This document shows positions 1 to 10,581 of a DNA stretch of 10,581 nucleotides, piece by piece. The DNA is taken from NCBI GenBank assembly GCA_000980495.1, contig LARN01000050.1, forward strand, positions 1 through 10,581, written 5' to 3'. The notes below the pieces were generated by a model. It saw only the letters and a list, made by a program, of their open reading frames with translations, searched no databases and was not told where the DNA came from. Every line of letters starts with the position of its first letter. Position 1 is the first letter of the stretch. The DNA comes from Acinetobacter sp. N54.MGS-139 (GTDB lineage: Bacteria; Pseudomonadota; Gammaproteobacteria; Burkholderiales; Burkholderiaceae_F). Position numbers and translations under genes: made by a program.

Positions 1-74
1 ACAGGACAGTGAAACGCCTCCACGCCGATGATAGTGAGTTGTATTTCTTGCGAAAGTAGGTAGTCTCCGGGCTC
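1..74 (+). rRNA. rrf: 5S ribosomal RNA, 3' part (5' end outside window)
   Basis: The first 74 bases match the 3' two thirds of a bacterial 5S rRNA. They contain the conserved GTGAAACGCCTCCACGCCGA and GATGATAGTG segments, then GCGAAAGTAGGTAGTCTCC, and end in the closing-stem GGGCTC. The wording (GATGATAGTG, GAAAGTAGGTA) is the form I know from betaproteobacteria. The gene runs rightward and is cut by the left window edge at roughly residue 42 of about 115. The exact 3' end could be off by a base or two. A terminator follows within about 15 bp, so this is the last gene of its rrn operon. Confidence 0.93.
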
Positions 75-86
75 TCCATAAAAGAC

Positions 87-123
87 AAACCTCTTGGACC
101 TAACCGTTCAAGAGGTTTTGTTT
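87..123 (+). terminator. Rho-independent terminator of the rRNA operon
   Basis: AAACCTCTTG (87-96) pairs exactly with CAAGAGGTTT (109-118). The stem extends through a G-T pair, A-T and C-G to 99/106, leaving a 6-nt loop, and is followed by TTTTGTTTT. It lies just after the 5S end. Confidence 0.9.
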
Positions 124-141
124 TATCTGCTCATTTCTCCT

Positions 142-159
142 GTGTGAACATGTTCACAC
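142..159. promoter_or_regulatory. 18-bp perfect palindrome, candidate parS/ParB site 1
   Basis: GTGTGAACATGTTCACAC is perfectly symmetrical about 150/151. The same 14-bp core recurs at 608-621, just upstream of parA. Paired palindromes next to a parAB operon are the usual form of ParB binding sites. The sequence differs from the chromosomal parS TGTTTCACGTGAAACA and from the KorB operator, so the assignment rests on position and symmetry only. Confidence 0.6.
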
Positions 160-480
160 TCGTGCTCTGTCTTCCACACCTAAAACTGCGGAAATCGAGC
201 CGCAAGCCTTACCAAATTAGGCTTTCCTGATTTTATGTTTTCTAATCTTGTTGTAGTAGAGCAAATTTTAAGAACCCTTGTCTGCTCTATATCGACCCGA
301 CATTAGGAGTGATTAATTCGAGTACCAAGACTGCTTCGAAAAAATAGAAATTCGATCTCGCTTATAGCTCTTTTTCTTTCAATAACAGCGATGTGTCTAA
401 TCGCTGTAGATTTTACTTATTTAGATTTCTTTCTTTAATGTCCGTCTTCACTCACAACTTTTCTTTAGAAAAGCGGAACT

Positions 481-497
481 ATGTGAAAAAGACCACA
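481..497 (-). repeat. 17-bp iteron-like repeat, perfect copy
   Basis: ATGTGAAAAAGACCACA is the exact complement of the repeat consensus TGTGGTCTTTTTCACAT. It lies 218 bp upstream of the parA start. Confidence 0.85.
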
Positions 498-577
498 GAT
501 GTGTAGCTCTTGTCTCTTATTTTCTTCGAATCTCTGCCAACAATCATTGAAATCTTTCTCTCAGAAGTTCCAATATT

Positions 578-594
578 ATGTGGAAATGACCACA
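578..594 (-). repeat. 17-bp iteron-like repeat, 15/17
   Basis: ATGTGGAAATGACCACA has two mismatches in the A-rich centre; the TGTG and GACCACA ends are intact. It stands 97 bp from the copy at 481 in the same orientation, and immediately before the parS-like palindrome at 606-623. Confidence 0.75.
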
Positions 595-605
595 ACTCTT
601 TTGTA

Positions 606-623
606 GTGTGAACATGTTCACTC
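606..623. promoter_or_regulatory. Palindrome, candidate parS or parA operator, site 2
   Basis: GTGTGAACATGTTCACTC contains the perfect 14-bp palindrome GTGAACATGTTCAC (608-621) and is 17/18 identical to the site at 142-159. It ends 75 bp before the parA start, so it could also mediate autoregulation of parAB. Confidence 0.6.
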
Positions 624-698
624 GTCACATTTCAAACGCTGATTTTTGAATTTGTTAAGATACCGTCTGAAGATATCTACAAATTTAAGGAAGTCCCT

Positions 699-1469
699 AT
701 GGGGAAAGTCATAGCTTTTGCTAATCAAAAAGGCGGAGTCGGCAAATCAACATTAACGGTTCAAGCTGCTTTTTATTTACGTAAACATCGTAAAAAGAAA
801 GTGCTAGTCATCGATATTGATTCGCAGGGAAATACGACAGAGTCTTTAACGCAAGGACAACCATATACAGCTACATCATCCGCTGCTCTTTTTGAACCGA
901 ATCTCGAAGAGCTCGGGATCTTTGATGACACTCCATACGGCGTAGATTTAATCGGATCTGAACAGAACTCGAATGAGGGTTATGACATCGAAAGCCGCGA
1001 GCTGGATGTCATTCGCAATCCGGCTGCGAATATCCAAGCAATAAAAGACGCTTACGACTATATCTTGGTCGATTGTCCGCCTTCTTTAGGACGTAAGCTC
1101 CTCGGCGGATTAGTCATGGCCGATTATGTCGTCTGCCCGATCAAACTTTCTGGTTATGCGGTCGGAGGCGTGTCCGGCATGGTCAACACCATTCGTGCCG
1201 TACAGCAGAATTTCAATCCAAGCCTCAAATTTTTAGGCGTAGTGGTAAACGAATACGACGATTCCGCTTCTGCCAAGAGCACACTGCAGTACCTTGTTTC
1301 TGAGACTAACTGCGATATCTTCAACTCCAAACTCAGACATCGTGCTCCGATTGATGCCGCTACGACAATGGGCATTCCCGTGGACGAAATCCGTAACGGA
1401 AAACGATCCTACGAAGAGCTTGAAGCCGTGTACAAAGAGATGCTGGCCAGAATTAAAAAAATTGGTTAA
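699..1469 (+). CDS. parA: ParA-type partition ATPase
   Basis: This 256-residue cytosolic ATPase of the ParA/MinD (SIMIBI) class would move or position the replicon through ATP-dependent nucleoid binding together with ParB. The deviant Walker A motif KGGVGKST is at residues 11-18. The A' region VIDIDSQGN is at 38-45, and the Walker B-like ILVDCPPSLG is at 122-131. There is no N-terminal helix-turn-helix extension, so it is the short ParA type (plasmid Ib-like or chromosomal Soj size), in which ParB rather than ParA usually represses the operon. AAGGA at 687-691 lies 7 nt before the ATG and supports this start. parB begins 2 nt after the stop, so the two genes form an operon. A Soj-like chromosomal origin is possible, but the company of Rep_3 and a KorB-like ParB favours a plasmid system. 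Confidence 0.95.
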   Translation: MGKVIAFANQKGGVGKSTLTVQAAFYLRKHRKKKVLVIDIDSQGNTTESLTQGQPYTATSSAALFEPNLEELGIFDDTPYGVDLIGSEQNSNEGYDIESRELDVIRNPAANIQAIKDAYDYILVDCPPSLGRKLLGGLVMADYVVCPIKLSGYAVGGVSGMVNTIRAVQQNFNPSLKFLGVVVNEYDDSASAKSTLQYLVSETNCDIFNSKLRHRAPIDAATTMGIPVDEIRNGKRSYEELEAVYKEMLARIKKIG

Positions 1470-1471
1470 AT

Positions 1472-2449
1472 ATGAAAACCTTTAAAGTTACAAAAACAAA
1501 GACCCAAACATTCAAACCGACAAACATCAAAAGTTTGACCGAGTTCAATGGCGCGATCGCCGCAGGCGTCAATGGAAAAGTTCTGACCAAATTACCGGTA
1601 GAGTCGATTGAAGCAAAACCTCAGGTAAGAACGGTTATTGAAAATATCGATGAGCTGGCCGAATCTATGAAATCCGGCCAGCTGATACCAATTACAGTCA
1701 TTAAAGGTGAAAATAATAAATACGTTGTCCTGCAGGGCGAACGCCGCTGGCTTGCCGCTAAGAAAGCCGGCTTGGAGACGGTAGAAGCTATCGTTGTTGA
1801 TGCTCCGGTTTCCGATTCAGAAAGAATTTTCGGTCAGCTAACCGAGAATATCCAGCGCGACAATATGAAGCTTCAGGATTTGATCCAAAGCATCAGCCAG
1901 CTGATTCGGAACGGTTTTAACCAAACCGAAATTGCTGCTCGTTTGGGCAAAGACAGAACTTATATTTCTCGTATTGCCGCATTAGCTTCTTCTAAGGAAG
2001 AAGTTCTTAAATTGATTGCCGATTGCGCTGTTAACGATGCTCAGACAGCACAGATCCTGAACAATATCTGTGAAAAAAGCACCAACATCGCTAAAGATCT
2101 GGAAGCTTGCAAAGACAAAGACGGCTTAATTAGCCGCGGCTCTGCACAGGCTGTATTGGACAGACTCCAGAAAATCGTTCCGCAGAAACCCAAAAAAGTC
2201 GTTGCGTTTGAAGATCGTCTTAAAAAGAAAGACTTTCCTAAAGGTTATCGCCGTGTGCCTGCCGGTAAGGCCTTGGGTATTCAAGTTGAATTTTTAGATG
2301 AGACAGGTGAGAAAGTTTCCGGCAATCTTCTTCCGCGATTACTTTCCGATCGTCACGACGAAGTCTGCGTCTTACGTGAAGATAACAAAACCGTCATAGC
2401 AGTGTCTGTGGACAAAATTAAGATCAAAATGATTGACGAGTTGGCGTAG
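1472..2449 (+). CDS. parB: ParB/KorB-like partition protein
   Basis: This 325-residue DNA-binding partition protein is the partner of the ParA encoded 2 nt upstream. The N-terminal ParB/Srx nucleotide-binding fold covers about residues 38-130, with the GERRW motif (89-93) and TENIQRDN (124-131), matching the ENxQR box of ParB CTPases. A helix-turn-helix spans about 148-172 (QTEIAARLGKDRTYISRIAA). The last 75 residues include a beta-rich segment (VEFLDETGEKVSG, then CVLREDNKTVIAVSVD) that resembles the SH3-like C-terminal domain of KorB; that comparison is from memory. No clear Shine-Dalgarno precedes the ATG, so translational coupling to parA is likely. The lysine-rich first 20 residues could contact ParA. 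Probable DNA targets are the palindromes at 142-159 and 606-623. The dispersed 17-bp repeats are the alternative. Confidence 0.93.
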   Translation: MKTFKVTKTKTQTFKPTNIKSLTEFNGAIAAGVNGKVLTKLPVESIEAKPQVRTVIENIDELAESMKSGQLIPITVIKGENNKYVVLQGERRWLAAKKAGLETVEAIVVDAPVSDSERIFGQLTENIQRDNMKLQDLIQSISQLIRNGFNQTEIAARLGKDRTYISRIAALASSKEEVLKLIADCAVNDAQTAQILNNICEKSTNIAKDLEACKDKDGLISRGSAQAVLDRLQKIVPQKPKKVVAFEDRLKKKDFPKGYRRVPAGKALGIQVEFLDETGEKVSGNLLPRLLSDRHDEVCVLREDNKTVIAVSVDKIKIKMIDELA

Positions 2450-2465
2450 ATCAAACGCTCTTGAT

Positions 2466-2515
2466 ATGTGAAAAAGACCACAAAATCGTTTGAAGATTTG
2501 TGGTCTTTTTCTCAT
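2466..2515. terminator. Inverted pair of 17-bp repeats forming a bidirectional terminator
   Basis: A perfect repeat copy on the minus strand (2466-2482) faces a 16/17 copy on the plus strand (2499-2515). GAAAAAGACCACAAA (2470-2484) pairs perfectly with TTTGTGGTCTTTTTC (2497-2511), a 15-bp stem with a 12-nt loop, flanked by A and T runs in both directions. It lies between the convergent parB and MFS genes and overlaps the MFS stop codon (2512-2514). It could end both transcripts and also bind the repeat-recognising protein. Confidence 0.75.
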
Positions 2516-3864
2516 TTTTCCAGTCCTAATTTTTTCGCGTAGTAGTAGGTCAGGAAGGCCCCTAGTCCGAGGACGGCAACAGACGTAGCAAGCGCCAAGG
2601 ACACGCCTCCCAGCTTCATGAGGATAGGAAAACAGAAAACTGCGATTACTGCACCTAGTTTTCCGAAAAACGCGGCATAACCCGCCCCTTCAGCCTTAAT
2701 GTCCAACGGAAAGACTAATGACGGAATGATGAACGTCGTAAGATTTGGACCAGCGTTCAGAGCAAGCTCAAACAGAACAAACGCTGCAATTGAAATAGCG
2801 GCAGGCCATTTAAATAAATAGCAGAGCAGCAGAAGTAAAACGGCTGCGGCTGCGAGCAGGAATCCGTAAAACTGTTGTTTGACGGTCGAGACTTTATGAA
2901 GAATAAAAAGACCGGCTATAAATCCGATGAGAATGAACCAGCTGATAATAAACGTGAGATTCACTGAGTTCATTACGGATCCCAAAGGACCGGGTTTAGA
3001 AGTATCAAATCCGGAAATGCCGAGGCTCATAATAAGGATCGGGAGAAAGATGCCGATTCCATATACGCCAAGTCCCGAACATCCCCAAGGCACACCGGAA
3101 AAAATCACCTTCTGAAGGTTTTCTCCTTTAAACAGATCTACTTTGGCGCCGTTAGAAGCAGGAGCGGATTTTTCCAAATAGGACGATGGAATCTCAACAT
3201 CAGACCCAAGCATTGCCTTAACAACCTGTCTGGCTTCGTCAAACTTTCCTTTTGCAATAAGAAAGCCGGGACTTTTAAAAAAGAATAAACGGCTGATGAT
3301 CATTAAAAATGAGAGAAAGACCACAAATAAGAAGATCTGTCTCCAAATTTCTGCGGTCCACTCGATCGAACAGAGAAAGAGGAAACCTCCGGCAGCTGAC
3401 AAGTTTCCGAGAGCAGAAAATGATTTGGTAATACCGACCATCGTTTCCTGCCAGCGTTTCGGCATCACTTCATCAACATAGTCTGAGTCCAACGCAAAAT
3501 CGCCTCCGATGCCGAATCCCATGACAAATAGCGATGGAATCAGCAGATCAATGCTTCCTGAGACGTAGACAACAAGCGCACCAATAAAAACAAGGATAGA
3601 GCTCAATCGAAGGAACGGAAGATATCCGTCCTTATCGGCAAGCTTTCCGATAACAAAAGATCCGACCATAATGCCGATCAGCTCCATACTGGCAATCAGA
3701 CCTTGTGTCACGGAGTCCAATTCGTGATGCTGTACGATGGCAAGAAGAGGAATTAAGACGCCTGAAAGCGTTGCAACAGCGGCTCCTAGGAATTGACCCA
3801 TCGCTGTTGTAATCAAAACACGAAAATGCCCGAACCTCAAAGGCATCGTATCCAAATAGACCAT
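2512..3864 (-). CDS. MFS transporter, sugar-porter/metabolite-symporter type
   Basis: This 450-residue hydrophobic protein with about 12 predicted membrane segments is a major facilitator superfamily permease of the inner membrane. The loop 2-3 motif GKLADKDG is at residues 73-80. GFGIGGDFALDSDYVDEVMP (116-135) followed by KRWQE resembles the helix-4/5 signature of sugar and organic-acid porters, with acidic residues in unusual number. KSPGFLIAKGKFDEAR (197-212) matches the start of the central cytoplasmic loop typical of that group. The substrate cannot be told. AAGGA lies 6 nt before the ATG. The last codons and the stop overlap a copy of the 17-bp repeat, and another copy (3309-3325) lies inside the gene at residues 180-186. 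It converges with parB and lies downstream of rep on the same strand, separated by a hairpin terminator, so it is probably a separate transcript. It looks like cargo rather than maintenance function. Confidence 0.88.
   Translation of the reverse strand: MVYLDTMPLRFGHFRVLITTAMGQFLGAAVATLSGVLIPLLAIVQHHELDSVTQGLIASMELIGIMVGSFVIGKLADKDGYLPFLRLSSILVFIGALVVYVSGSIDLLIPSLFVMGFGIGGDFALDSDYVDEVMPKRWQETMVGITKSFSALGNLSAAGGFLFLCSIEWTAEIWRQIFLFVVFLSFLMIISRLFFFKSPGFLIAKGKFDEARQVVKAMLGSDVEIPSSYLEKSAPASNGAKVDLFKGENLQKVIFSGVPWGCSGLGVYGIGIFLPILIMSLGISGFDTSKPGPLGSVMNSVNLTFIISWFILIGFIAGLFILHKVSTVKQQFYGFLLAAAAVLLLLLCYLFKWPAAISIAAFVLFELALNAGPNLTTFIIPSLVFPLDIKAEGAGYAAFFGKLGAVIAVFCFPILMKLGGVSLALATSVAVLGLGAFLTYYYAKKLGLEK
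3309..3325 (-). repeat. 17-bp repeat inside the MFS gene, 15/17
   Basis: ATGAGAGAAAGACCACA has two mismatches to the consensus. It encodes residues 180-186 (FVVFLSF) of a membrane segment. It may be a chance match compatible with hydrophobic codons, or a true site. Confidence 0.45.
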
Positions 3865-3953
3865 TTTTATTCCTTATTTTTTCTTCAAGGATACGAGGAA
3901 GAGAAGGAAAAACAGAAAGACTGCGGCCGTTTAGAGACACAACAGCTTAAACA

Positions 3954-3970
3954 ATGTGAAAAAGACCACA
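3954..3970 (-). repeat. 17-bp iteron-like repeat, perfect copy
   Basis: An exact copy (ATGTGAAAAAGACCACA) in the 170-bp gap between the rep stop and the MFS start. It is inverted relative to the copy at 4041-4057, with the rep terminator hairpin between them. Confidence 0.85.
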
Positions 3971-3994
3971 ATATTTTTCAGAAAACCGTGTCTC

Positions 3995-4024
3995 CTAAAA
4001 ATCAAAACAGCCGGGCGGCTGTTT
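3995..4024 (-). terminator. Rho-independent terminator of rep
   Basis: AAACAGCC (4005-4012) and GGCTGTTT (4017-4024) form an 8-bp stem with a 4-nt loop. Read on the minus strand, the hairpin is followed by TTGATTTTTAGG. It starts 10 bp past the rep stop codon and separates rep from the MFS gene. Confidence 0.78.
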
Positions 4025-4034
4025 CGTAGAGGTT

Positions 4035-5150
4035 TTAATTTGTGGTCTTTTTCACATTTTTCTTGACCGCTGATGAAGGTTTGAACCCGAGGTCATGTAA
4101 ATAGACTCTCGCTTCATACACAAACTTGGGATCGGCCAAACGGTTTTCGATCCAGCGTTTCCAAGACTCTTGAGAGTAACCTTCACGTCCGGCGGCATTG
4201 ATGAACTCGCCGGCAAAGCGGTTGCCTACGCCGCCGTCGTTGTGACGACTAAGAAGAGAGGCAAAGTAATTTCTCTGACCGTCCGACAAAGTCAGGTTCT
4301 GCCAATCATCATCGCTGTAGCCCACGAGATCTCTGACATCCGGAACATCCTCGGGCGGAACCGACTGCGTTCTTTCTACAAGAATGTTGGGACGATTCTT
4401 AACGGAAAAAATAATATGAGTAAATTTTCTGCCGGTCCGTACGAACTCGCACTCCACATGGAAGTCGATTTTGGTCGCTTCATTAATTTTGGCAGCGCAC
4501 TCTCTGACGATTCGAGCGACGTCGCCGTTTAATTTTTTTTGAGGAATGTTAAGAATGTCTTTGAGCTCGGTAATCGTCATCTTTTTAACCTGGCCGCGCC
4601 AGCGCACGCACAGCTCGAAGAATCGTAATGTCGAAACACTCTTCAATTCGGAAATCTGTTTAATCGGATAGCGAATGAAGTTGCTGCGAATACGTGTCAG
4701 AAAGGGGAGGACTTCCTGGGAGAACGTCAGGCCGATCATGCCGCTTCGATAAGAGACCTTAGAAATCCAACGGAACTCATCACGTTCTTTACCGTTGGAT
4801 CCGAAGGTTCGGATAACGCTTCTGTTGTAAAGCGTATTGACTGCGTTCTGGAGGTATTTATAGGCCTTAGACCGCTCGCTGCCGATCTCTCTTAACTCTT
4901 TAGCAGAAACCCAATAACTTGCATCCCCTCTGACCTCCGGATTCATCGAATCGATCTTACTGATCGCAACTAAGATGATTCGAAGTTCATTTAGGGTGAG
5001 GTTGGTTTTCGCCGTCAGCAGGTCGTTTGATTTAACAACGACTGCATTGGTATTCCATAAAGAATTCTTTTTCCCGGCTTTAGGGCTGTCAGACCAATCA
5101 TCATCGTCTGTGAGGAGTTCAAACTCCTGTTGTTGATTTTCGCTGGCCAT
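4035..5150 (-). CDS. Rep_3-family replication initiator protein
   Basis: This 371-residue plasmid initiator belongs to the RepA/RepB/Pi class (Rep_3), which binds iterons as a monomer, opens the origin and recruits DnaB. The hallmark entry VVVKSNDLLTAKTNLTLNEL (37-56) opens the first winged-helix domain (about 37-155). The second, the main DNA-binding unit, spans about 157-255 (YPIKQISELKSVSTLRFFEL at 161-180; MTITELKDIL at 191-200). The acidic N-terminus (LLTDDDDW) and a tail of about 110 residues beyond the core (including VPDVRDLVGY and WKRWIENRLADPKF) are longer than in minimal Rep_3 proteins. GGAGG lies about 7 nt before the ATG. Six phased iterons start 88 bp upstream, which matches the usual rep-oriV arrangement. 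Dimers of such proteins usually repress their own promoter. The last codons overlap a perfect iteron copy. There is no frameshift or truncation. Confidence 0.94.
   Translation of the reverse strand: MASENQQQEFELLTDDDDWSDSPKAGKKNSLWNTNAVVVKSNDLLTAKTNLTLNELRIILVAISKIDSMNPEVRGDASYWVSAKELREIGSERSKAYKYLQNAVNTLYNRSVIRTFGSNGKERDEFRWISKVSYRSGMIGLTFSQEVLPFLTRIRSNFIRYPIKQISELKSVSTLRFFELCVRWRGQVKKMTITELKDILNIPQKKLNGDVARIVRECAAKINEATKIDFHVECEFVRTGRKFTHIIFSVKNRPNILVERTQSVPPEDVPDVRDLVGYSDDDWQNLTLSDGQRNYFASLLSRHNDGGVGNRFAGEFINAAGREGYSQESWKRWIENRLADPKFVYEARVYLHDLGFKPSSAVKKNVKKTTN
4041..4057 (+). repeat. 17-bp repeat embedded in the 3' end of rep, perfect copy
   Basis: A perfect TGTGGTCTTTTTCACAT lies wholly inside the rep coding sequence. 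On the coding strand it supplies most of the C-terminal residues NVKKTTN before the stop at 4035-4037. Confidence 0.85.
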
Positions 5151-5237
5151 TAATACCCTCCGATCCGGCTCATTCTGACATTTCGATAGTTGATTCTCTC
5201 ACACTTCCTCTTCCAAAAGGAAAAAGAATCGGAAGCC

Positions 5238-5383
5238 TGTGGTCTTTTTTACATAATTTTGTGGTCTTTTCCACATAAATTCATCGGCGTTTGTGGTAAA
5301 AACCACATATTAAGTCGCCTTTTTCACAGAAAAAAATAGCTTATTTGTGGTCAAATTCTCATATTTTGTGGTCTTTTATACAT
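5238..5383 (+). repeat. Iteron array of oriV: six direct 17-bp repeats
   Basis: Copies in the TGTGGTC orientation start at 5238 (16/17), 5260 (16/17), 5292 (ends intact, centre changed), 5313 (degenerate, 13/17, CTTTTTCACA intact), 5346 (13/17) and 5367 (15/17). The start-to-start steps are 22, 32, 21, 33 and 21 bp. These are close to two or three turns of B-DNA each time, so all copies present the same helical face. The array lies between the rep start and a very A+T-rich tract. This is the layout of an iteron-controlled origin. Confidence 0.88.
5292..5307. promoter_or_regulatory. Symmetrical iteron variant, possible Rep-dimer site
   Basis: TGTGGTAAAAACCACA has perfect 6-bp arms TGTGGT/ACCACA around four A's. 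The other copies have only 4-5 bp arms. Rep_3 dimers typically bind inverted versions of the iteron half, so this member may be read differently from its neighbours. It lies about 140 bp upstream of rep, farther than a usual operator. Confidence 0.4.
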
Positions 5384-5520
5384 TTTTACCTCTGTATCTT
5401 TTTGATTTAAAAGTGAAAATAGGGGCCTAAAAAATAAAAAGATTAATATAAAAATATAAAAAAGGCCTACGATTAAAAGACACACCCAATTAAAAAGGCT
5501 TCAAAAAATTTTAAAGCGAC
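5384..5520. other. A+T-rich tract, probable DNA unwinding element of oriV
   Basis: The tract directly follows the iterons and is almost free of G and C over 5427-5463 (AAAAATAAAAAGATTAATAT and similar). Two GGCCT blocks (5424-5428 and 5464-5468) flank that core 40 bp apart. Iteron plasmids place the melting region next to the iterons, so this is the likely strand-opening site. I see no DnaA box TTATNCACA here. Confidence 0.6.
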
Positions 5521-5728
5521 GCAAACAGCTCAGTTTGGATGGAACAAATCAGCAAGCCTCTGTTGTAGAGAGTTTTCAAAAAGAGAACAAGTCAGACAAC
5601 ACCGACAGAACCCCACAAAAATTTCGCAAAAAAGAAAATAGAAGAGATACAACAAGAGGAAAATCTAAAAGTGAGAAGAAAAAATTAAGTTGTCAAAAAG
5701 ATGACGCAGAGAAGATCGGACAGAAGAT

Positions 5729-5745
5729 ATGGGAAAAAGACCACA
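5729..5745 (-). repeat. 17-bp iteron-like repeat, 16/17
   Basis: ATGGGAAAAAGACCACA differs from the consensus at one position in the TGTG arm. It is inverted relative to the oriV array and lies 346 bp beyond it, on the far side of the A+T-rich tract. Confidence 0.75.
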
Positions 5746-5950
5746 ATTTCAACGTCTGAAAGTTAGCTTAGGCCACAGAAATTACAATGCACAGTGGTTA
5801 TGAGTGCCAGAATAGAAATAGTTCCGGCCAATTTTTGATAAACCCAAGGCTATCAGGGCTTTTTATTAAATTTAAAAATAAAAAAATCCGTCCCTTAATT
5901 TGCTATTCATCCCATATTTGTGTTATTTTTTCTAGCAATTATCGGTTTAC

Positions 5951-6015
5951 GGGCCTAGATCGAAGCCCTCCAAGATTTAGATGTTCATTGAACACGTCGG
6001 TCTAGGCTCTTTTTT
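5951..6015 (+). terminator. Strong + strand terminator hairpin with structured loop
   Basis: GGGCCTAGATCG (5951-5962) pairs along its whole length, with two G-T pairs, with CGGTCTAGGCTC (5998-6009). TTTTTT follows at 6010-6015. The 35-nt loop contains a second small hairpin, TGTTC-ATT-GAACA (5982-5994). The T run gives termination on the + strand, opposite to dnaB, whose stop codon begins 5 bp on. No + strand gene ends here, so it either protects dnaB from opposing transcription or ends a short untranslated RNA. Confidence 0.7.
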
Positions 6016-6019
6016 CTTC

Positions 6020-7384
6020 TTATTGATTCCAAGCGTTTAATTCCTCAAAGCATTGAATCTCGCCTTTGAAAATCGTTGAAAAAACTTCGAGGCGTCCGTT
6101 TCGATGCTTTGCTAAATCCATATAAATGGTTCTGGAGTCGCCTTGTTCCTGGCCGAATTTCGCCTTGGAATAGAGCAGGAGCACCATGTCGGCGTCCTGT
6201 TCAATGGAGCCCGACTCTCTGAGGTCGGACAAAAGCGGAGTATGGTTCGGACGGTTTTCGACCTGACGGTTAAGCTGTGATAAAAGAAGTACCGGCGCAT
6301 TGAGCTCTTTGGCCAGAAGCTTCAAACCTCTGGAAAGAATACCGATCTGTATGGAGCGAAGATCCGCAGAAGCGTTTTCGTCTTCCTGTTCAAGGAGCTG
6401 AAGATAGTCAACTACGACAAGTCCGATACTGCCGACCTGAGCGGCAAGCTGACGCAGCTTTGTCTTGATGCGCATAAGTGTCAGCTCACTGGAACTGTCA
6501 ACGAATATCGGTGCTTTGGACAGCACTTCTTGAGCTTGATAAATTTTGCTCCATTGAGTATCCGTCATTTGGGCGCCATCGATACTTTCCATTTCAACTT
6601 CGCTCTCAGAGCTCAGCATTCTTTTAAGGACTTCGTTTTTCGTCATTTCCAGTGCGAAGATCGCTACCGGCTTCTTCTGACGAACAGCCGTCCGTCTTGC
6701 GACTTGCAGCGCAAAAGCCGTCTTGCCGATGCCCGGACGTGCTGCGATAACAACCAGTTGTCCGGGTCTAAAGCCTCGCGTTACGTCGTCAAGCTGCTCG
6801 ATCCCGCTTTCGCAGCCGCGAATTTCCGTCGGAGACTCCGCGATAGAACGCATCTCGTCAATGACGCCGTCCAAAATAGAGCCGGCAGACTCAAAGGAAG
6901 AAGCTTCTTTATTTTTGCCAAGTCCCATTTTTAAGAACTCGCTTTGAACGCGGTCGAGCAAGTCTTCGGAAGAGGCTCCTCTGTCTGAATTGACTTCAGC
7001 TTCTAACTGAGCCAGTTTGGAAATGAGGTTGCGTTTGAGTGCCTTATCTTTGACGATTCTTGCATATTCGCTGAGGTTAGCTGCGCTGGCGTAGCTTTCC
7101 GTCAAACGATTGAGGTACTCCAATCCGCCTGTCTCTTTTTCATTTCCGATTTCTCTCAATAAATCTGAGACCGTGAGTACATCGGCAGGTTTGCCTTGAG
7201 AGGCCAAAGAGAAAATGGCCTGATAAATCAGTCGATTGGCATAGCTGTAAAAGTCACCGGGCTCTAAAGGCGGTTCAATTAAATGGAAAGCCTCCGGATT
7301 GGCTAAAAGAGCACCCAATAAAGCATGTTCAGCTTCCTGAGAGTGAGGAGGAAGCGGTAAAGAATCGATGATAGGAGCAGACAT
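6020..7384 (-). CDS. dnaB: Replicative DNA helicase DnaB
   Basis: This 454-residue hexameric 5'-3' helicase unwinds DNA at the replication fork and interacts with primase. The N-terminal DnaB domain covers about residues 10-105 (PPHSQEAEHALLGALL near the start), then a linker and the RecA-like domain from about 168. Walker A ARPGIGKTAF is at about 215-224, Walker B VVVDYLQL at 323-330, SQLNR at 369-373, SDLRESGSIEQDAD at 386-399, and the AKHRNGR arginine-finger region at 425-431. All catalytic motifs are intact and the length is normal. I chose the ATG at 7384, with AGG 6 nt upstream; a TTG two codons earlier has no room for a ribosome site. dnaB is normally a chromosomal gene next to rplI. 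Here it stands alone, 640 bp from an iteron origin, suggesting a plasmid-owned helicase matched to the Rep protein. Confidence 0.95.
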   Translation of the reverse strand: MSAPIIDSLPLPPHSQEAEHALLGALLANPEAFHLIEPPLEPGDFYSYANRLIYQAIFSLASQGKPADVLTVSDLLREIGNEKETGGLEYLNRLTESYASAANLSEYARIVKDKALKRNLISKLAQLEAEVNSDRGASSEDLLDRVQSEFLKMGLGKNKEASSFESAGSILDGVIDEMRSIAESPTEIRGCESGIEQLDDVTRGFRPGQLVVIAARPGIGKTAFALQVARRTAVRQKKPVAIFALEMTKNEVLKRMLSSESEVEMESIDGAQMTDTQWSKIYQAQEVLSKAPIFVDSSSELTLMRIKTKLRQLAAQVGSIGLVVVDYLQLLEQEDENASADLRSIQIGILSRGLKLLAKELNAPVLLLSQLNRQVENRPNHTPLLSDLRESGSIEQDADMVLLLYSKAKFGQEQGDSRTIYMDLAKHRNGRLEVFSTIFKGEIQCFEELNAWNQ

Positions 7385-7408
7385 AAACAACCTACAAAAG
7401 TTTTTCCC

Positions 7409-7436
7409 ATTGTAGATAGTTAGATAAAAAGCTCAA
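7409..7436 (-). promoter_or_regulatory. Probable dnaB promoter
   Basis: On the minus strand TTGAGC (7431-7436) and TACAAT (7409-7414) are separated by 16 bp. A transcript would start near 7402 and give a leader of about 18 nt with the AGG ribosome site. No other promoter-like pair stands out here. Confidence 0.45.
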
Positions 7437-7462
7437 AAAAATCAGAGGTAAAAAAATTAAAA

Positions 7463-7479
7463 ATGAGGAAAAGACCACA
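7463..7479 (-). repeat. 17-bp iteron-like repeat, 15/17
   Basis: ATGAGGAAAAGACCACA lies between the acyltransferase stop codon (next base but one) and the dnaB promoter, ending 27 bp upstream of its -35 element. A protein bound here could affect dnaB transcription. Confidence 0.7.
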
Positions 7480-7480
7480 A

Positions 7481-8602
7481 TTACTTTTGGATTGCCGGAG
7501 CATTAAGGAAGTCAGTTACTTTTTTGTCTAACGGTTGGAGTCGAGGCAACAGGTATCTTTGGTACCCGGACTGAAGAATCTTTTCCCAAATAAGATCCAA
7601 AATTGCGCAAACAAAAAATACGATTGTGATGACTGCAAGTGCATACAGGATGAACCAAGAGGCACCCAAGTATTCCGGCACGTGGAATACTTTGCTCCAG
7701 AGCCACGGATAAACAATCGGATTCTCATGAATGAGGTAGACGCCGAACATAGCTGCCGCCAACTTGTTGATCCACGGTTTATAGCTGATCTGAAGTTGTT
7801 TAAAGAAGACAAAAAGCGAGAGCGCACAAACTAAAGAGAAGACGCTATACAAGTTTGCAAAGGTGAACCAATCAATGTAGCCGATGAAAGTTCCGGCGCG
7901 ATTATTCCAATCGGCAAGTGCAATGATGATGGCGATAATGCCCCAACTCAATCCGCAAACCGACAAACATACGGATTGGGGGAAGGTTTTCTTTTCTAGG
8001 TAGTCCCTGAGGAAAGCGCCCCAGGAAAAGAGATAAACAAACCAAAAAAGCGTTGAACCGTAATATTCCGGTTTAGTTGTGAGCGTGGGGATGACAGACC
8101 AGAAAAAACCGAAAATTAATAAGAAAGCGAACAGCTTTCGCTGCCCTAACGCTTTAATTCCTATCGTGATAAACGGAGAGAGCAGAATAAGGAGGAAGTA
8201 GGCGGAAACAAACCAATAAAAATCATTTCGTATTGGGAAAAAACAGCTGACCAAAGAACTCCAACTAAAGGGATGTAAACCGAGAGCACAAAAGAGCAGG
8301 AAAAAGATAATTACGTAGGAGAACGTCTTTATCCACAGATAGACAAGGCTGGAAAATTTACTGAATTTTTTAGCGAGAAAATATCCGGTGATTAAAACAA
8401 ATAAATTAACGCCGATTTTGCCTCCGGTTGAAAGCAGCTGATCCAAGTAAAAATTAAAAGAGAGAGGCGCTGAGCCGCTCCAAATCGAGACTCCGCCGTG
8501 CACGGAGAAGTGATGCATCACAATGAGGTACATCGCCAAAATTCGAGAGAGCTCGAGATTGGATTGTCGTGGTGCCTTTTTCACATATTTGGCGTCAGTC
8601 AT
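7481..8602 (-). CDS. Acyltransferase-3 family membrane protein
   Basis: This 373-residue integral membrane protein with about ten predicted helices belongs to the acyltransferase-3 family (OafA/NodX-like), which transfers acetyl or other acyl groups to sugars of surface polysaccharide, peptidoglycan or other exported acceptors. The family signature R-x10-H is seen as R20 and H31 in ELSRILAMYLIVMHHFSVHG, followed by GKIGVNLFVLITGYFLAKKF. The length matches the bare transmembrane form without an SGNH extension. No strong Shine-Dalgarno is visible; GAGATAAG lies before the ATG. Codons 6-11 (YVKKAP) overlap a degenerate 17-bp repeat. It is transcribed toward dnaB, with a 96-bp gap and no clear terminator, so read-through is possible. 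There are no glycan synthesis genes nearby, so the acceptor is unknown. I read it as cargo. Confidence 0.87.
   Translation of the reverse strand: MTDAKYVKKAPRQSNLELSRILAMYLIVMHHFSVHGGVSIWSGSAPLSFNFYLDQLLSTGGKIGVNLFVLITGYFLAKKFSKFSSLVYLWIKTFSYVIIFFLLFCALGLHPFSWSSLVSCFFPIRNDFYWFVSAYFLLILLSPFITIGIKALGQRKLFAFLLIFGFFWSVIPTLTTKPEYYGSTLFWFVYLFSWGAFLRDYLEKKTFPQSVCLSVCGLSWGIIAIIIALADWNNRAGTFIGYIDWFTFANLYSVFSLVCALSLFVFFKQLQISYKPWINKLAAAMFGVYLIHENPIVYPWLWSKVFHVPEYLGASWFILYALAVITIVFFVCAILDLIWEKILQSGYQRYLLPRLQPLDKKVTDFLNAPAIQK
8570..8586 (+). repeat. Degenerate 17-bp repeat at the start of the acyltransferase gene
   Basis: The last eleven bases, CTTTTTCACAT, match the consensus exactly, while the TGTGGT arm is shifted (GTGGTGC; 14/17 ungapped). 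It may be a decayed site or a coincidence of the codons for YVKKAP. Confidence 0.35.
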
Positions 8603-9282
8603 TGCTTATCTCATTGAGTAAGGAACTCGAAGAGACAGTATAAATAAGGCCAGAGAAAACCGTCTAAACGATTTATCGCAATAGGATCAGAATGCAGTTA
8701 ACGCCTTGAAAGAGATCTCTCAGAAGTGTTTTTTGGCCGAGGCGCATAGGACTAAAAAATTGTGGTCTTTTTCACATAATAGAGAATGAAAATGTGCAGG
8801 AATTTAGTTGGTTGAGCTCAATGCTCCGGCAGTCGCTGAACGGATAAGGATTTTTAGCGTGACTGTGCTCTAAAGCTTTCTTCTCCAGCTCTAAACAATG
8901 AGAAAAAGACCACAATCTACGGAGGAGAAACTTTGGAATATGTGTAAAAGACCACAAAAAATTAGTTATTGCTTCTTTGAAAGGGCGAGATAGGCAGCAG
9001 CATGAAATCGCTATCGTTATTTAGGCGGAAAAGTCCTCAGAGGTGGAAAAATCGGGAAAAAAATGTGGTCTTTTTTACATAGAAAAAGAAAAAAGGAGAA
9101 TGAATAAGTGGAAAAGACCACAAGGCAAGACAGCAGAATGGCAATTCGCAAAAACTGTGGTCAAAACTACATTTTTGTCGTCTTGCATTTCAATTTGTTC
9201 GGTTTGGCAAAACAGGCAACTTCTCGGACTCACCTAAATAAAGCGCCGGATTGCTAAACTTTTGGTTTCTAGGACTACAAGA
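8603..9282. other. Gene-free region with the second repeat cluster
   Basis: No convincing gene is seen. Two short open frames (8772-8957 minus, and 9043-9237 plus with a GTG start) are read straight through repeat copies and have no recognisable content. The repeat cluster at 8761-9172 dominates the stretch. The last 90 bp hold the leader of the EamA gene. Confidence 0.6.
8761..9172. repeat. Second cluster of six 17-bp repeats, mixed orientation (incA-like)
   Basis: Copies start at 8761 (+, perfect), 8898 (-, 16/17), 8940 (-, 16/17), 9064 (+, 16/17), 9106 (-, 15/17) and 9156 (+, ends intact, centre A-rich, 11/17). The steps 8898-8940 and 9064-9106 are both 42 bp, four helical turns. Unlike the origin array, the orientation alternates and there is no A+T-rich melting tract beside it. 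By analogy with the incA iterons of plasmid P1 it may titrate Rep or pair with the origin to limit copy number. Confidence 0.7.
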
Positions 9283-10194
9283 ATGCTGAAAATTCTCAAA
9301 GGTGTCTTCCTGGCAGCATTTGCAGGCTGCTGCTGGGGAAGTATGGCCGTGGCTGCCCAATATCTTTTTACTAACTGCGGTTTTGAAGCCCGTCACCTTA
9401 CAACGCTTCGCTTAATCGGAGCCGGGGTTCTGTTATTGGCGCTTCAAGCTGCTTTCGGAGGATTTCAAAGTATTCTGAAACCGTTCAAAGAAAAGCGAAA
9501 TATCCGTGACGTTTTGATCTACGGTGTCGGCGTTCTTTTAATTCAATACACGTTCTTCCTTGCGATTGAGCAGAGTAATGCCGGAACCGCAGCTATTATG
9601 GTTGGTGTCGGTCCGCTTTTTATCATCGGATATTTGGCGATCTGCAAACATCGAAAACCTGTCCCCAAAGAATTCTTTTGTCTCTTTCTGGCTATAAGCG
9701 GAGTTTCTTTGGTCGTTACTAAAGGAAATTTCGAGTCTCTGGATTTTGTTTCTACCGGAGCATTTTGGGGCTTGCTGTCATCCGCTTTCGGGGCTTTTTG
9801 CACTGTACAGCCTAAAAACGTTATCTCTCGTGTCGGAGTTTCTAATGTTGTGGGCTGGGGAATGGTTGTCGGCGGATCGATTGCTTGTCTCTTCACGAAT
9901 CCCTTTGCAATGGATGTTCATTGGACTTTGCCCTCTGTTCTTTGTTATTTCCAAATAATTGCTTTCGGAACGGTTGCGGCATTCTGGTGTTATCTCAAAA
10001 GTACTGAGTACGTTATTCCGTCAATCACAGCTATCCTCGGTTCCTTTGAACCCTTATCCGCAGTTGCCCTGTCGGTGATTATTCTCGGGGCTACGTTCAA
10101 TTCATATGAACTGCTTGGCGCAACAGCTATTCTTGCCAACATGCTTATTCTTGCGTGGCCGTCTAAAGATACGGAATCATTAACTGCAAACTGA
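9283..10194 (+). CDS. EamA/DMT-family transporter
   Basis: This 303-residue protein with about ten predicted membrane helices belongs to the drug/metabolite transporter superfamily (EamA, RhaT-like), inner membrane. It shows the two-repeat layout: an opening GVFLAAFAGCCWGSMAVAAQ and R-rich LTTLRLIGAGVLLLAL in the first half. The second half starts near GLLSSAFGAFCTVQPK and ends with SITAILGSFEPLSAVALSVI, a conserved pattern of the family (A-x-x-x-x-x-E-P). The substrate cannot be told from sequence; members export amino acids, purines or drugs. I chose the ATG at 9283 because AGGA (9271-9274) lies 8 nt upstream. A TTG at 9262 is in frame but has no ribosome site. It is the only gene besides parAB on the + strand, and it lies between the second repeat cluster and the rRNA promoters. 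A small hairpin (10195-10215) follows its stop without a T run. Confidence 0.88.
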   Translation: MLKILKGVFLAAFAGCCWGSMAVAAQYLFTNCGFEARHLTTLRLIGAGVLLLALQAAFGGFQSILKPFKEKRNIRDVLIYGVGVLLIQYTFFLAIEQSNAGTAAIMVGVGPLFIIGYLAICKHRKPVPKEFFCLFLAISGVSLVVTKGNFESLDFVSTGAFWGLLSSAFGAFCTVQPKNVISRVGVSNVVGWGMVVGGSIACLFTNPFAMDVHWTLPSVLCYFQIIAFGTVAAFWCYLKSTEYVIPSITAILGSFEPLSAVALSVIILGATFNSYELLGATAILANMLILAWPSKDTESLTAN

Positions 10195-10244
10195 TGTTGT
10201 ATAAAGCACACAACAATTAGAAACATTTGTAAGACGTGCTCAAC

Positions 10245-10273
10245 TTGCGCACTCTGAATTGTTTCGTTAAGAT
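10245..10273 (+). promoter_or_regulatory. rRNA operon promoter, upstream candidate (P1)
   Basis: TTGCGC (10245-10250), a 17-bp spacer and TAAGAT (10268-10273), followed by a GC-containing discriminator (GCACGTC). An A+T-rich stretch lies upstream. Its position about 310 bp before the 16S start suits a P1-type rRNA promoter. Confidence 0.5.
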
Positions 10274-10349
10274 GCACGTCCTGTCGCTGGTGCACAACGC
10301 AGCAACGATAAACGGAAATGAAGTTTTACATTTGAAGTTATTCAGTCGT

Positions 10350-10377
10350 TTGACAGAAAATTTTAAACGAGTAAAAT
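10350..10377 (+). promoter_or_regulatory. rRNA operon promoter, strong downstream candidate (P2)
   Basis: TTGACA (10350-10355), a 16-bp spacer and TAAAAT (10372-10377): a consensus -35 with a near-consensus -10 at the spacing usual for rRNA promoters. An A+T-rich UP-like tract (GAAGTTTTACATTTGAAGTT) lies upstream. Transcription would start near 10384, just before the boxB-boxA elements. Confidence 0.75.
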
Positions 10378-10581
10378 TTCAATTCTTCGCTCACGAAACT
10401 GAGCGGCGGCGAAAGCCGAAATGATCTTTAAAAATTTATCGACGACCGATAAGAGCGGGCACTGAGAAGTCTGCAGTGGAAGCTGCAAATTTAAATTGCT
10501 CGATCTTATTGGAGATGAAGGAGTAGAAAATACTCCGTCAAACACCAAGCAAGAGTAATTCGAGCGACAACAGAGATTAAA
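10378..10581 (+). other. 16S rRNA leader with boxB hairpin and boxA
   Basis: The hairpin CGGC-GAAA-GCCG (10407-10418) is a boxB-like element with a GNRA tetraloop. Three bases later comes TGATCTTTAAAA (10422-10433), close to the rrn boxA TGCTCTTTAACA. CCGATAAGAGCGGGCACTGA (10446-10465) then recalls the leader just downstream of boxA in betaproteobacterial rrn operons. Further stems are TGCAG/CTGCA (10472/10483) and GGAGTA/TACTCC (10520-10536). The window ends in AGAGATTAAA, which in this group directly precedes the mature 16S start. No 16S bases are seen, so the gene is inferred to begin at or just past the right edge. Confidence 0.82.

What the first reader, a model, noticed from the sequence alone, without database searches (positions are those of the whole stretch)
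1..10581. The window looks like an rrn-plasmid opened at its rRNA operon
Seen: a 5S 3' end with terminator at the left edge, and rRNA promoters, boxA and a 16S leader at the right edge, in the same direction. All between is plasmid-type: Rep_3 initiator, iteron oriV, parAB, dnaB and a few cargo genes, with no typical chromosomal gene cluster. One ordinary rrn operon would join the ends into a circle of about 15-16 kb. Known: Aureimonas and several other bacterial lineages keep their rRNA operon on a plasmid, and the rrn-plasmids reported for strains lacking chromosomal rrn loci carry Rep_3 initiators. Inferred: this is another such plasmid, in a betaproteobacterium, carrying its own partition system and DnaB. 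If the chromosome lacks rrn, the element would be essential.
Basis: partly seen in the sequence, partly recalled or inferred. Interest (0 to 1): 0.92.

Follow-up and report, generated by a model that had tools for sequence, protein, structure and literature searches.

The report
Replicon lodged between two rRNA operons
A stretch of DNA from a gut bacterium (Parasutterella) holds a complete plasmid-type replication and partition kit sandwiched between two ribosomal-RNA operons; it may be an rRNA plasmid or a plasmid lodged in the chromosome, but it is probably not the cell's only source of ribosomal RNA.

Summary
The left edge is the 3' part of a 5S gene plus terminator. The right edge is an rRNA promoter, boxA and 16S leader in the same direction. 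Between them lie ParA, ParB, an MFS transporter, a Rep_3 initiator with iterons, DnaB, an acyltransferase and an EamA transporter. The window is Parasutterella: 93% identical to a 10,117-bp contig of P. excrementihominis YIT 11859, and syntenic with a P. muris contig.

"Sole, essential rrn plasmid" is unlikely: the nearest genome has four other 16S-leader ends and four other 5S ends, on contigs that look chromosomal.

In that assembly the element's contig shares exact 32-bp junctions with the contigs ending near nrdB (leader side) and marC (5S side). In two relatives homologues of its cargo genes lie near marC. Perfect copies of its putative parS lie near the nrdB rrn operon in both species that carry the element; the third Parasutterella, without it, has none.

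Best reading: a Rep_3/ParABS/DnaB replicon seated between direct-repeat rrn operons at the nrdB-marC locus, which recombination could excise as a ~16-kb rrn circle. Integrated and excised states give the same draft contigs; long reads are needed.

The parts
1..72 (+). 3' part of a 5S rRNA gene
   Evidence: Rfam 5S model positions 44-120, 5' cut off, E 0.015, below gathering score; 100% identical over 10-79 to two P. muris contig ends
87..126 (+). intrinsic terminator of the upstream rrn operon
   Evidence: 13-bp inverted repeat 87-99/106-118 followed by T tract; all or part of the same hairpin lies at the ends of contigs C34, C3 and C83 of G001
143..158 (.). putative parS, TGTGAACATGTTCACA; in G001 the last element of the 32-bp junction shared with contig C70 (marC)
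607..622 (.). second putative parS, about 80 bp upstream of parA (about 100 bp in P. muris)
699..1469 (+). ParA partition ATPase
   Evidence: Pfam AAA_31/CbiA; 99% aa identity to G001, 79% to P. muris, dN/dS 0.009
1472..2449 (+). ParB with KorB-type HTH
   Evidence: PF02195, PF08535, PF17762; TIGR00180 above its cut-off
2466..2515 (.). inverted pair of iteron-like units between convergent parB and MFS, possible bidirectional terminator
2512..3864 (-). MFS transporter (cargo); 44.5% homologue next to EamA and marC after a 5S gene in G003
4035..5150 (-). Rep_3 replication initiator (RepM/RepE-like)
   Evidence: PF01051 E 1.9e-30, Rep3_C; RepM model E 1.5e-41, below its cut-off; PDB relatives 1hkq, 1rep
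5238..5388 (+). iteron cluster (units 21-22 bp apart in pairs) and adjoining AT-rich stretch, probable oriV
   Evidence: similar units upstream of rep in G001 and P. muris
6020..7390 (-). element's own DnaB replicative helicase (ATG probably at 7384)
   Evidence: TIGR00665 440.6 bits, above cut-off; 41% identical to another DnaB homologue in G001 (C69), taken as the chromosomal one
7481..8602 (-). acyltransferase family 3 (cargo); 62% homologue near marC in G015
9262..10194 (+). EamA/DMT transporter (cargo; ATG probably at 9283); 64% homologue between a 5S end and marC in G003
10195..10581 (+). upstream region, promoter and leader (boxA) of an rrn operon; stops just before the expected 16S start

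Best explanation
The window is the unique DNA between two directly repeated rrn operons of a Parasutterella. It carries a complete Rep_3 replicon: Rep binds the iterons next to its gene and opens the AT-rich origin, the element's own DnaB is loaded as helicase, and ParA/ParB move copies by way of GTGAACATGTTCAC parS sites. The replicon became lodged at a chromosomal rrn locus between nrdB and marC, where its cargo genes have homologues in relatives. Bracketed by two near-identical rrn repeats of about 5 kb, it could be excised by RecA recombination as a circle of roughly 15-16 kb that takes one rrn operon with it, and be put back. Shown: gene content, rrn edges, intact and selected replication genes, exact junction sharing with the nrdB and marC contigs, cargo homologues near marC in two relatives, parS-like copies near the nrdB rrn operon, further rrn ends. 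Inferred: parS and iteron function, the two rrn copies and their order, reversible excision.
For: (1) In G001 (contig C41 is identical to NZ_GL883714.1, P. excrementihominis YIT 11859) C41 shares exactly 32 terminal bases with C1 (nrdB side, leader end) and exactly 32 with C70 (marC side, 5S end). The other leader ends reach further into the operon (window 10406, 10416, 10456 against 10241) and the other 5S ends start nearer the 5S (88, 101, 103 against 127). So the element and the nrdB/marC locus share the same immediate rrn flanks. (2) G003, the third Parasutterella, without this Rep and with no ParB above 32% identity to it: 5S-MFS-EamA-marC on one 5.6-kb contig. G015, another genus: an acyltransferase one ORF away from marC, with degP beyond. 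(3) GTGAACATGTTCAC: 7 sites in G001, 7 in P. muris, 0 in G003 (all 3 genomes searched; backwards control 0 in each); about 0.01 expected per genome. In G001: 2 on the element, 1 at the marC rrn end, 2 on the nrdB contig (one 120 bp from the rrn end, one 9 kb away), 2 elsewhere. In P. muris: 3 on the element, 3 between nrdB and the rrn leader (1.3-1.5 kb from it), 1 elsewhere. (4) Replication genes intact, dN/dS 0.009-0.069. (5) A P. muris-type ParB cluster (59%) is recorded on a contig of 57,272 bp and a 98%-identical partial Rep on one of 22,277 bp, longer than the predicted circles. (6) Precedent: chromosome-chromid fusion across rRNA operons in Cupriavidus (PMC8729776, abstract and outline).
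Against: No read or contig in hand crosses an rrn operon at this locus, so neither the integrated nor the excised junction is shown. No recombination rate or copy number was measured. Cargo homologues were seen near marC in only 2 of the 12 other marC neighbourhoods examined (and L128; a 13th, G004, was not fetched), a different cargo gene set in each; in G015 the acyltransferase points the other way relative to marC than it would in a lodged element. MFS identity to G003 is only 44.5% and could be paralogous. In P. muris marC lies in a molybdopterin-oxidoreductase cluster away from any rrn end seen, MFS and acyltransferase are not on the element, and its 5S side is interrupted by a repeat, probably an IS end. 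The long contigs in (5) are database records I could not open; most other close relatives in those listings have longest contigs under 14 kb (e.g. Rep 9,955, 9,421, 12,192), as both models predict. Three parS-like copies (C30, C48; C81 in P. muris) are not near a known rrn end.
Confidence: 0.5

Rival explanations
1. A stable free rrn plasmid, additional to the chromosomal rrn operons: the first reader's picture without its essentiality. An rrn operon with its flanks, and cargo from the marC neighbourhood, were captured from the nrdB-marC locus in the past, and the circle now replicates on its own.
For: Rep_3, iterons, own DnaB and ParABS intact and under purifying selection; same core gene order in two species at 59-79% aa identity in Rep/ParA/ParB; iteron-like units in every gap of more than 50 bp between the element's genes; Rep_3 rrn plasmids also exist beside chromosomal rrn, e.g. 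Bacillus sp. OV322 with parA (PMC10645730 passage).
Against: Same contig set as the lodged state; relatives' Rep and ParB recorded on contigs longer than the circle; parS-like copies near the nrdB rrn operon in both species; no relative in 72,556 plasmid records by megablast of the whole window, although that collection may hold few Parasutterella.
Confidence: 0.3
2. A fixed chromosomal integrant: an old plasmid insertion between two rrn operons that no longer replicates by itself; the window is an ordinary chromosomal interval bounded by rrn repeats.
For: 5S-to-leader intervals occur on an ordinary large contig (P. muris C41, 68 kb); cargo homologues near marC in two relatives; parS-like copies outside the element.
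Against: rep, dnaB and iterons show no decay, which is not expected of an unused origin in the chromosome; flanking direct repeats would tend to delete it.
Confidence: 0.17
3. The sole-rrn plasmid of a bacterium without chromosomal rrn, as in Aureimonas, Oecophyllibacter, Persicobacteraceae and Treponema saccharophilum.
For: Rep_3 initiator and parAB as in PMC10645730. The window's own chromosome is not held.
Against: Four other leader and four other 5S ends in G001, six other leaders in P. muris. A single-copy rrn circle would normally assemble through, whereas this contig stops exactly at the rrn edges, as multi-copy rrn does (although other species' rrn in a metagenome could also cause that).
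Confidence: 0.03

Closest known systems
Rep_3-type rrn plasmids (Anda et al. 2023, PMC10645730: Results part 1 of 3, Discussion and passages read)
   Same: Rep_3 initiator next to an rrn operon, some with parAB; small size
   Different: Its four named clades lack chromosomal rrn and were confirmed as plasmids; here other rrn ends remain in the relatives and circularity is unproven; 'Sutterell', 'Parasutterella' and 'Burkholderiales' have 0 occurrences in its main text
Chromosome-chromid fusion across rRNA operons in Cupriavidus necator KK10 (PMC8729776, abstract and outline read)
   Same: A replicon joined to the chromosome by recombination at rrn, also in Burkholderiales
   Different: A chromid and one fused strain; here a ~10-kb replicon, at least two species, intact origin
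RepM/RepE-like iteron plasmids with ParABS (general knowledge; models)
   Same: Initiator domains, iterons, putative parS upstream of parA
   Different: Own DnaB, 41% identical to another DnaB in the genome; cargo with homologues in a chromosomal neighbourhood; rrn at both edges; parS-like copies outside the element

Membership tests
Rep_3 rrn plasmid | Rep_3 (PF01051) initiator | tested here: met
   E 1.9e-30 plus Rep3_C
Rep_3 rrn plasmid | rrn operon on the same replicon | tested here: inconclusive
   Only the two rrn edges are in the contig; one or two operons possible
Rep_3 rrn plasmid | closed extrachromosomal circle | tested here: inconclusive
   No terminal overlap in window, C41 or C92, while the 4.2-kb P. 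muris contig C101 has a 77-bp one; no reads available
Rep_3 rrn plasmid | copy number above the chromosome | not testable with these tools
   Only one contig depth seen (NODE_60, cov 63.6), with nothing to compare
Sole-rrn plasmid | no rrn on the chromosome | tested here: not met
   In relatives: four other leader and four other 5S ends in G001, six other leaders in P. muris; own assembly not held
ParABS partition system | ParA ATPase and ParB genes side by side | tested here: met
ParABS partition system | centromere sites near parA bound by ParB | tested here: inconclusive
   Perfect palindromes near parA, found in the two genomes with this ParB and not in the third, whose ParB homologues are at most 32% identical; binding not testable here
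Replicon integrated at rrn by homologous recombination | direct rrn repeats on both sides with chromosomal genes beyond | tested here: inconclusive
   Exact 32-bp junctions shared with nrdB and marC contigs; no contig crosses the rrn

The most novel reading that the evidence does not exclude
A reversible 'rrn cassette': a Rep_3 replicon kept for a long time between two rrn operons in Parasutterella, toggling by rrn recombination between a chromosomal state and a multi-copy rrn plasmid, so that rRNA gene dosage can change, while its ParB also acts at chromosomal parS sites around that locus. It would be the missing intermediate on the road to bacteria whose rrn operons live only on plasmids.
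Probability: 0.2. Interest if true: 0.82.

Novelty: new variant of a known kind. Interest (0 to 1): 0.52.

Why it matters
How rrn operons move to plasmids, and how some bacteria come to lack chromosomal rrn, is open. The proposed route starts with a Rep_3 plasmid to which an rrn operon is translocated (PMC10645730, Fig. 5 legend). A Rep_3 replicon bracketed by two rrn operons would give a simple mechanism: excision between the repeats makes an rrn plasmid in one step, with neighbouring chromosomal genes as cargo. Named isolates exist (P. excrementihominis YIT 11859, P. muris NM82_D38), so the question could be settled with one long-read run per strain.

Tried and rejected
Sole-rrn plasmid: rejected for the relatives by counting rrn ends. 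Foreign cargo: doubted after finding homologues near marC in two relatives. Virus-like element: IMG/VR scans with Rep and EamA confirmed no relative, ParA gave one at 30%; DnaB gave 598 relatives, the 80 listed at 32-39% identity, the general family. Direct plasmid match: none by megablast; Rep matches in 2,894 plasmid records, all below 60% identity. 16S searched in G001, G002 and G003: no hit in any, the operons being collapsed or left out; hence contig ends were counted. nrdB neighbourhood in other genera: in G018 it is about 225 kb from the nearest listed 16S, in G012 on another contig than the two listed; G003 has no nrdB match. This says nothing on polarity. Canonical chromosomal parS (motif recalled) in all loci then held: seen in some same-family loci and one IMG/VR locus, in no Parasutterella locus, but those are a small part of the genomes. 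My first iteron pattern was mis-spaced and found nothing; corrected. Mosaic ancestry: from window 8527 to 10326 identity to G001 is about 99%, against 84-99% (median 91%) in the 28 blocks before it; it does not separate the models. Paper searches listed nothing that, by title and opening lines, describes this element; PMC8296556 (passages only) was not relevant.
Full report
What is there. The left edge is the last ~72 bases of a 5S gene followed by a hairpin terminator. The right edge is an rrn upstream region with a sigma-70-like promoter (11 of 12), a boxA-like motif and a leader that stops just before the expected 16S start. In between are parA, parB, an MFS gene, rep (Rep_3), an iteron region, dnaB, an acyltransferase gene and an eamA gene.

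Whose it is. The window's own assembly is not held. Window 127-10241 is 93% identical to the whole 10,117-bp contig C41 of G001, which is identical to NZ_GL883714.1, Parasutterella excrementihominis YIT 11859. A 7,390-bp P. muris contig (L014, 100% identical to G002:C92) runs leader-EamA-DnaB-Rep-ParB-ParA, at 55-79% protein identity to the window and without MFS and acyltransferase. It ends in half of an rrn terminator followed by 77 bases that also end two unrelated contigs, a repeat and probably an IS. Of 3 Parasutterella genomes 2 have the element's Rep; of 150 relatives 9 have some Rep match, and only these 2 above 34% identity. The 90%-level Rep cluster stands for 828 member sequences in public data.

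Is rrn elsewhere on the chromosome? Yes in the relatives. 16S itself was found in none of the three Parasutterella assemblies, so I counted rrn edges. G001: leader ends on C1, C41, C47, C53, C93; 5S-side ends on C3, C34, C41, C70, C83: five and five, one of each being the element's own. The contigs read bear ordinary genes: ribonucleotide reductase large and small chains on C1, MarC and a DegP-like protease on C70, a coaX-like ORF on C93 (my reading). P. muris: leader ends on seven contigs including C92; 5S ends on C41, C44, C47, C58 and C102 (G151 there is the genome of L014, with the contig numbers and lengths of G002). A sole-rrn element is therefore unlikely.

Which rrn copy the element belongs to. 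C41 and C1 share an identical suffix of exactly 32 bases, and C41 and C70 an identical prefix of exactly 32, as expected of paths that meet in an assembly graph. The other leader ends stop 165-215 bases further in, and the other 5S ends start 24-39 bases nearer the 5S. So nrdB-side (C1) and element paths enter one collapsed rrn, and element and marC-side (C70) paths leave it. That fits either C1-rrn-C41-rrn-C70, or C1-rrn-C70 plus a circle of C41 and rrn. The draft cannot decide.

Where the cargo comes from. G003 lacks this Rep and has no ParB above 32% identity to the element's. Its 5.6-kb contig C132 reads 5S, terminator, MFS (44.5% identical to the window's), EamA (64%), MarC (70% identical to C70's), MFS and EamA in the element's orientations. 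In G015 an acyltransferase 62% identical to the window's lies one ORF from marC, with degP beyond, but turned the other way relative to marC than in a lodged element. These are 2 of the 12 other marC neighbourhoods that I examined; the other 10 showed no cargo homologue. Either the replicon lodged there and took neighbours in, or it was excised from there with them. I could not polarise this: in P. muris marC sits in a molybdopterin-oxidoreductase cluster, and in 7 of the 11 loci directly before a parA.

Partition sites. GTGAACATGTTCAC occurs 7 times in G001, 7 in P. muris and never in G003; its backwards control never; chance expectation is about 0.01 per genome. One copy lies about 80-100 bp upstream of parA in window, G001 and P. 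muris, so I take it as parS. Outside the element, copies lie 120 bp (G001) and 1.3-1.5 kb (P. muris, three copies) from the leader end of the nrdB rrn contig, and one starts the marC contig. For G001, two of five non-element sites within 200 bp of eight rrn ends has a rough probability of 3e-6 (post hoc, and the C70 site is part of the shared junction). One further site, beside an AEC-type permease and a TorD-like gene (my reading), appears to be shared by G001 C30 and P. muris C81. Either the replicon is or was in this region, or its ParB has targets on the chromosome.

Is the replicon alive? Between window and G001, dN/dS is 0.009 (ParA), 0.069 (ParB), 0.031 (Rep) and 0.026 (DnaB), without internal stops. 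Iterons lie upstream of rep in all three elements, and iteron-like units are scattered between the genes: 18, 19 and 17 in window, C41 and C92, against 6 in 132 kb of 12 other G001 loci, 5 of the 6 in a locus fetched because it matched such units. DnaB is only 41% identical to another DnaB in G001. An unused integrated origin should have decayed, so I give weight to replication at least part of the time.

Against a pure circle: a P. muris-type ParB cluster is recorded on a contig of 57,272 bp and a 98%-identical partial Rep on one of 22,277 bp, whereas circles with one ~5.2-kb rrn operon (length recalled) would be ~12.6 and ~15.7 kb. I could not open those contigs, and most other close relatives in the listings lie on contigs under 14 kb.

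Verdict. Observation confirmed. The rrn-plasmid reading is possible but not shown, and its strongest form (essential, sole rrn) does not hold in the relatives. The best-supported account is a live Rep_3/ParABS/DnaB replicon at a chromosomal rrn locus, bracketed by rrn repeats that would allow excision as an rrn circle.

Literature. PMC10645730 (Results part 1 of 3, Discussion, passages) defines Rep_3 rrn plasmids; 'Sutterell', 'Parasutterella' and 'Burkholderiales' do not occur in its main text. PMC8729776 (abstract and outline) gives replicon fusion across rrn in Burkholderiaceae. Searches listed no paper that appears to treat this element.

Noticed in passing
window 8527-10326: The right 1.8 kb (EamA to leader) is about 99% identical to G001 while the 28 blocks before it have a median of 91%; EamA dS 0.022 against 0.19-0.60 in the other six genes: a recent recombination tract next to the rrn edge.
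   Followed up: partly
window 2466-2515; L014 about 4711-4748: An inverted pair of iteron-like units lies between convergent parB and its neighbour in both species and could be both a bidirectional terminator and a Rep-binding site.
   Followed up: no
L251 4454-6237 (G001:C23): Five iteron-like units within 1.8 kb of a 37.5-kb contig around UmuD-like and ADP-ribosylglycohydrolase-like ORFs (my reading of the translations), possibly the trace of another related replicon.
   Followed up: partly
L099 (G002:C101, 4,214 bp): A separate P. muris contig with a 77-bp terminal overlap, so probably a circular 4.1-kb plasmid, with a distant Rep_3 gene (27%).
   Followed up: partly
L014 7313-7390: A repeat, probably an IS end, sits inside the rrn terminator hairpin at the element's 5S side in P. 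muris; the same 77-78 bases begin contigs C95 and C124.
   Followed up: partly
L129 and L092 (G002:C41, 68,164 bp): A large contig with 5S at its head and 16S leader at its tail in one direction, a control that this geometry alone does not show a circle.
   Followed up: yes
L161-L167: In these seven same-family genomes (of the 11 loci) marC sits directly before a parA, mostly with parB after it, whereas in Parasutterella it lies at an rrn end or in a molybdopterin-oxidoreductase cluster.
   Followed up: no
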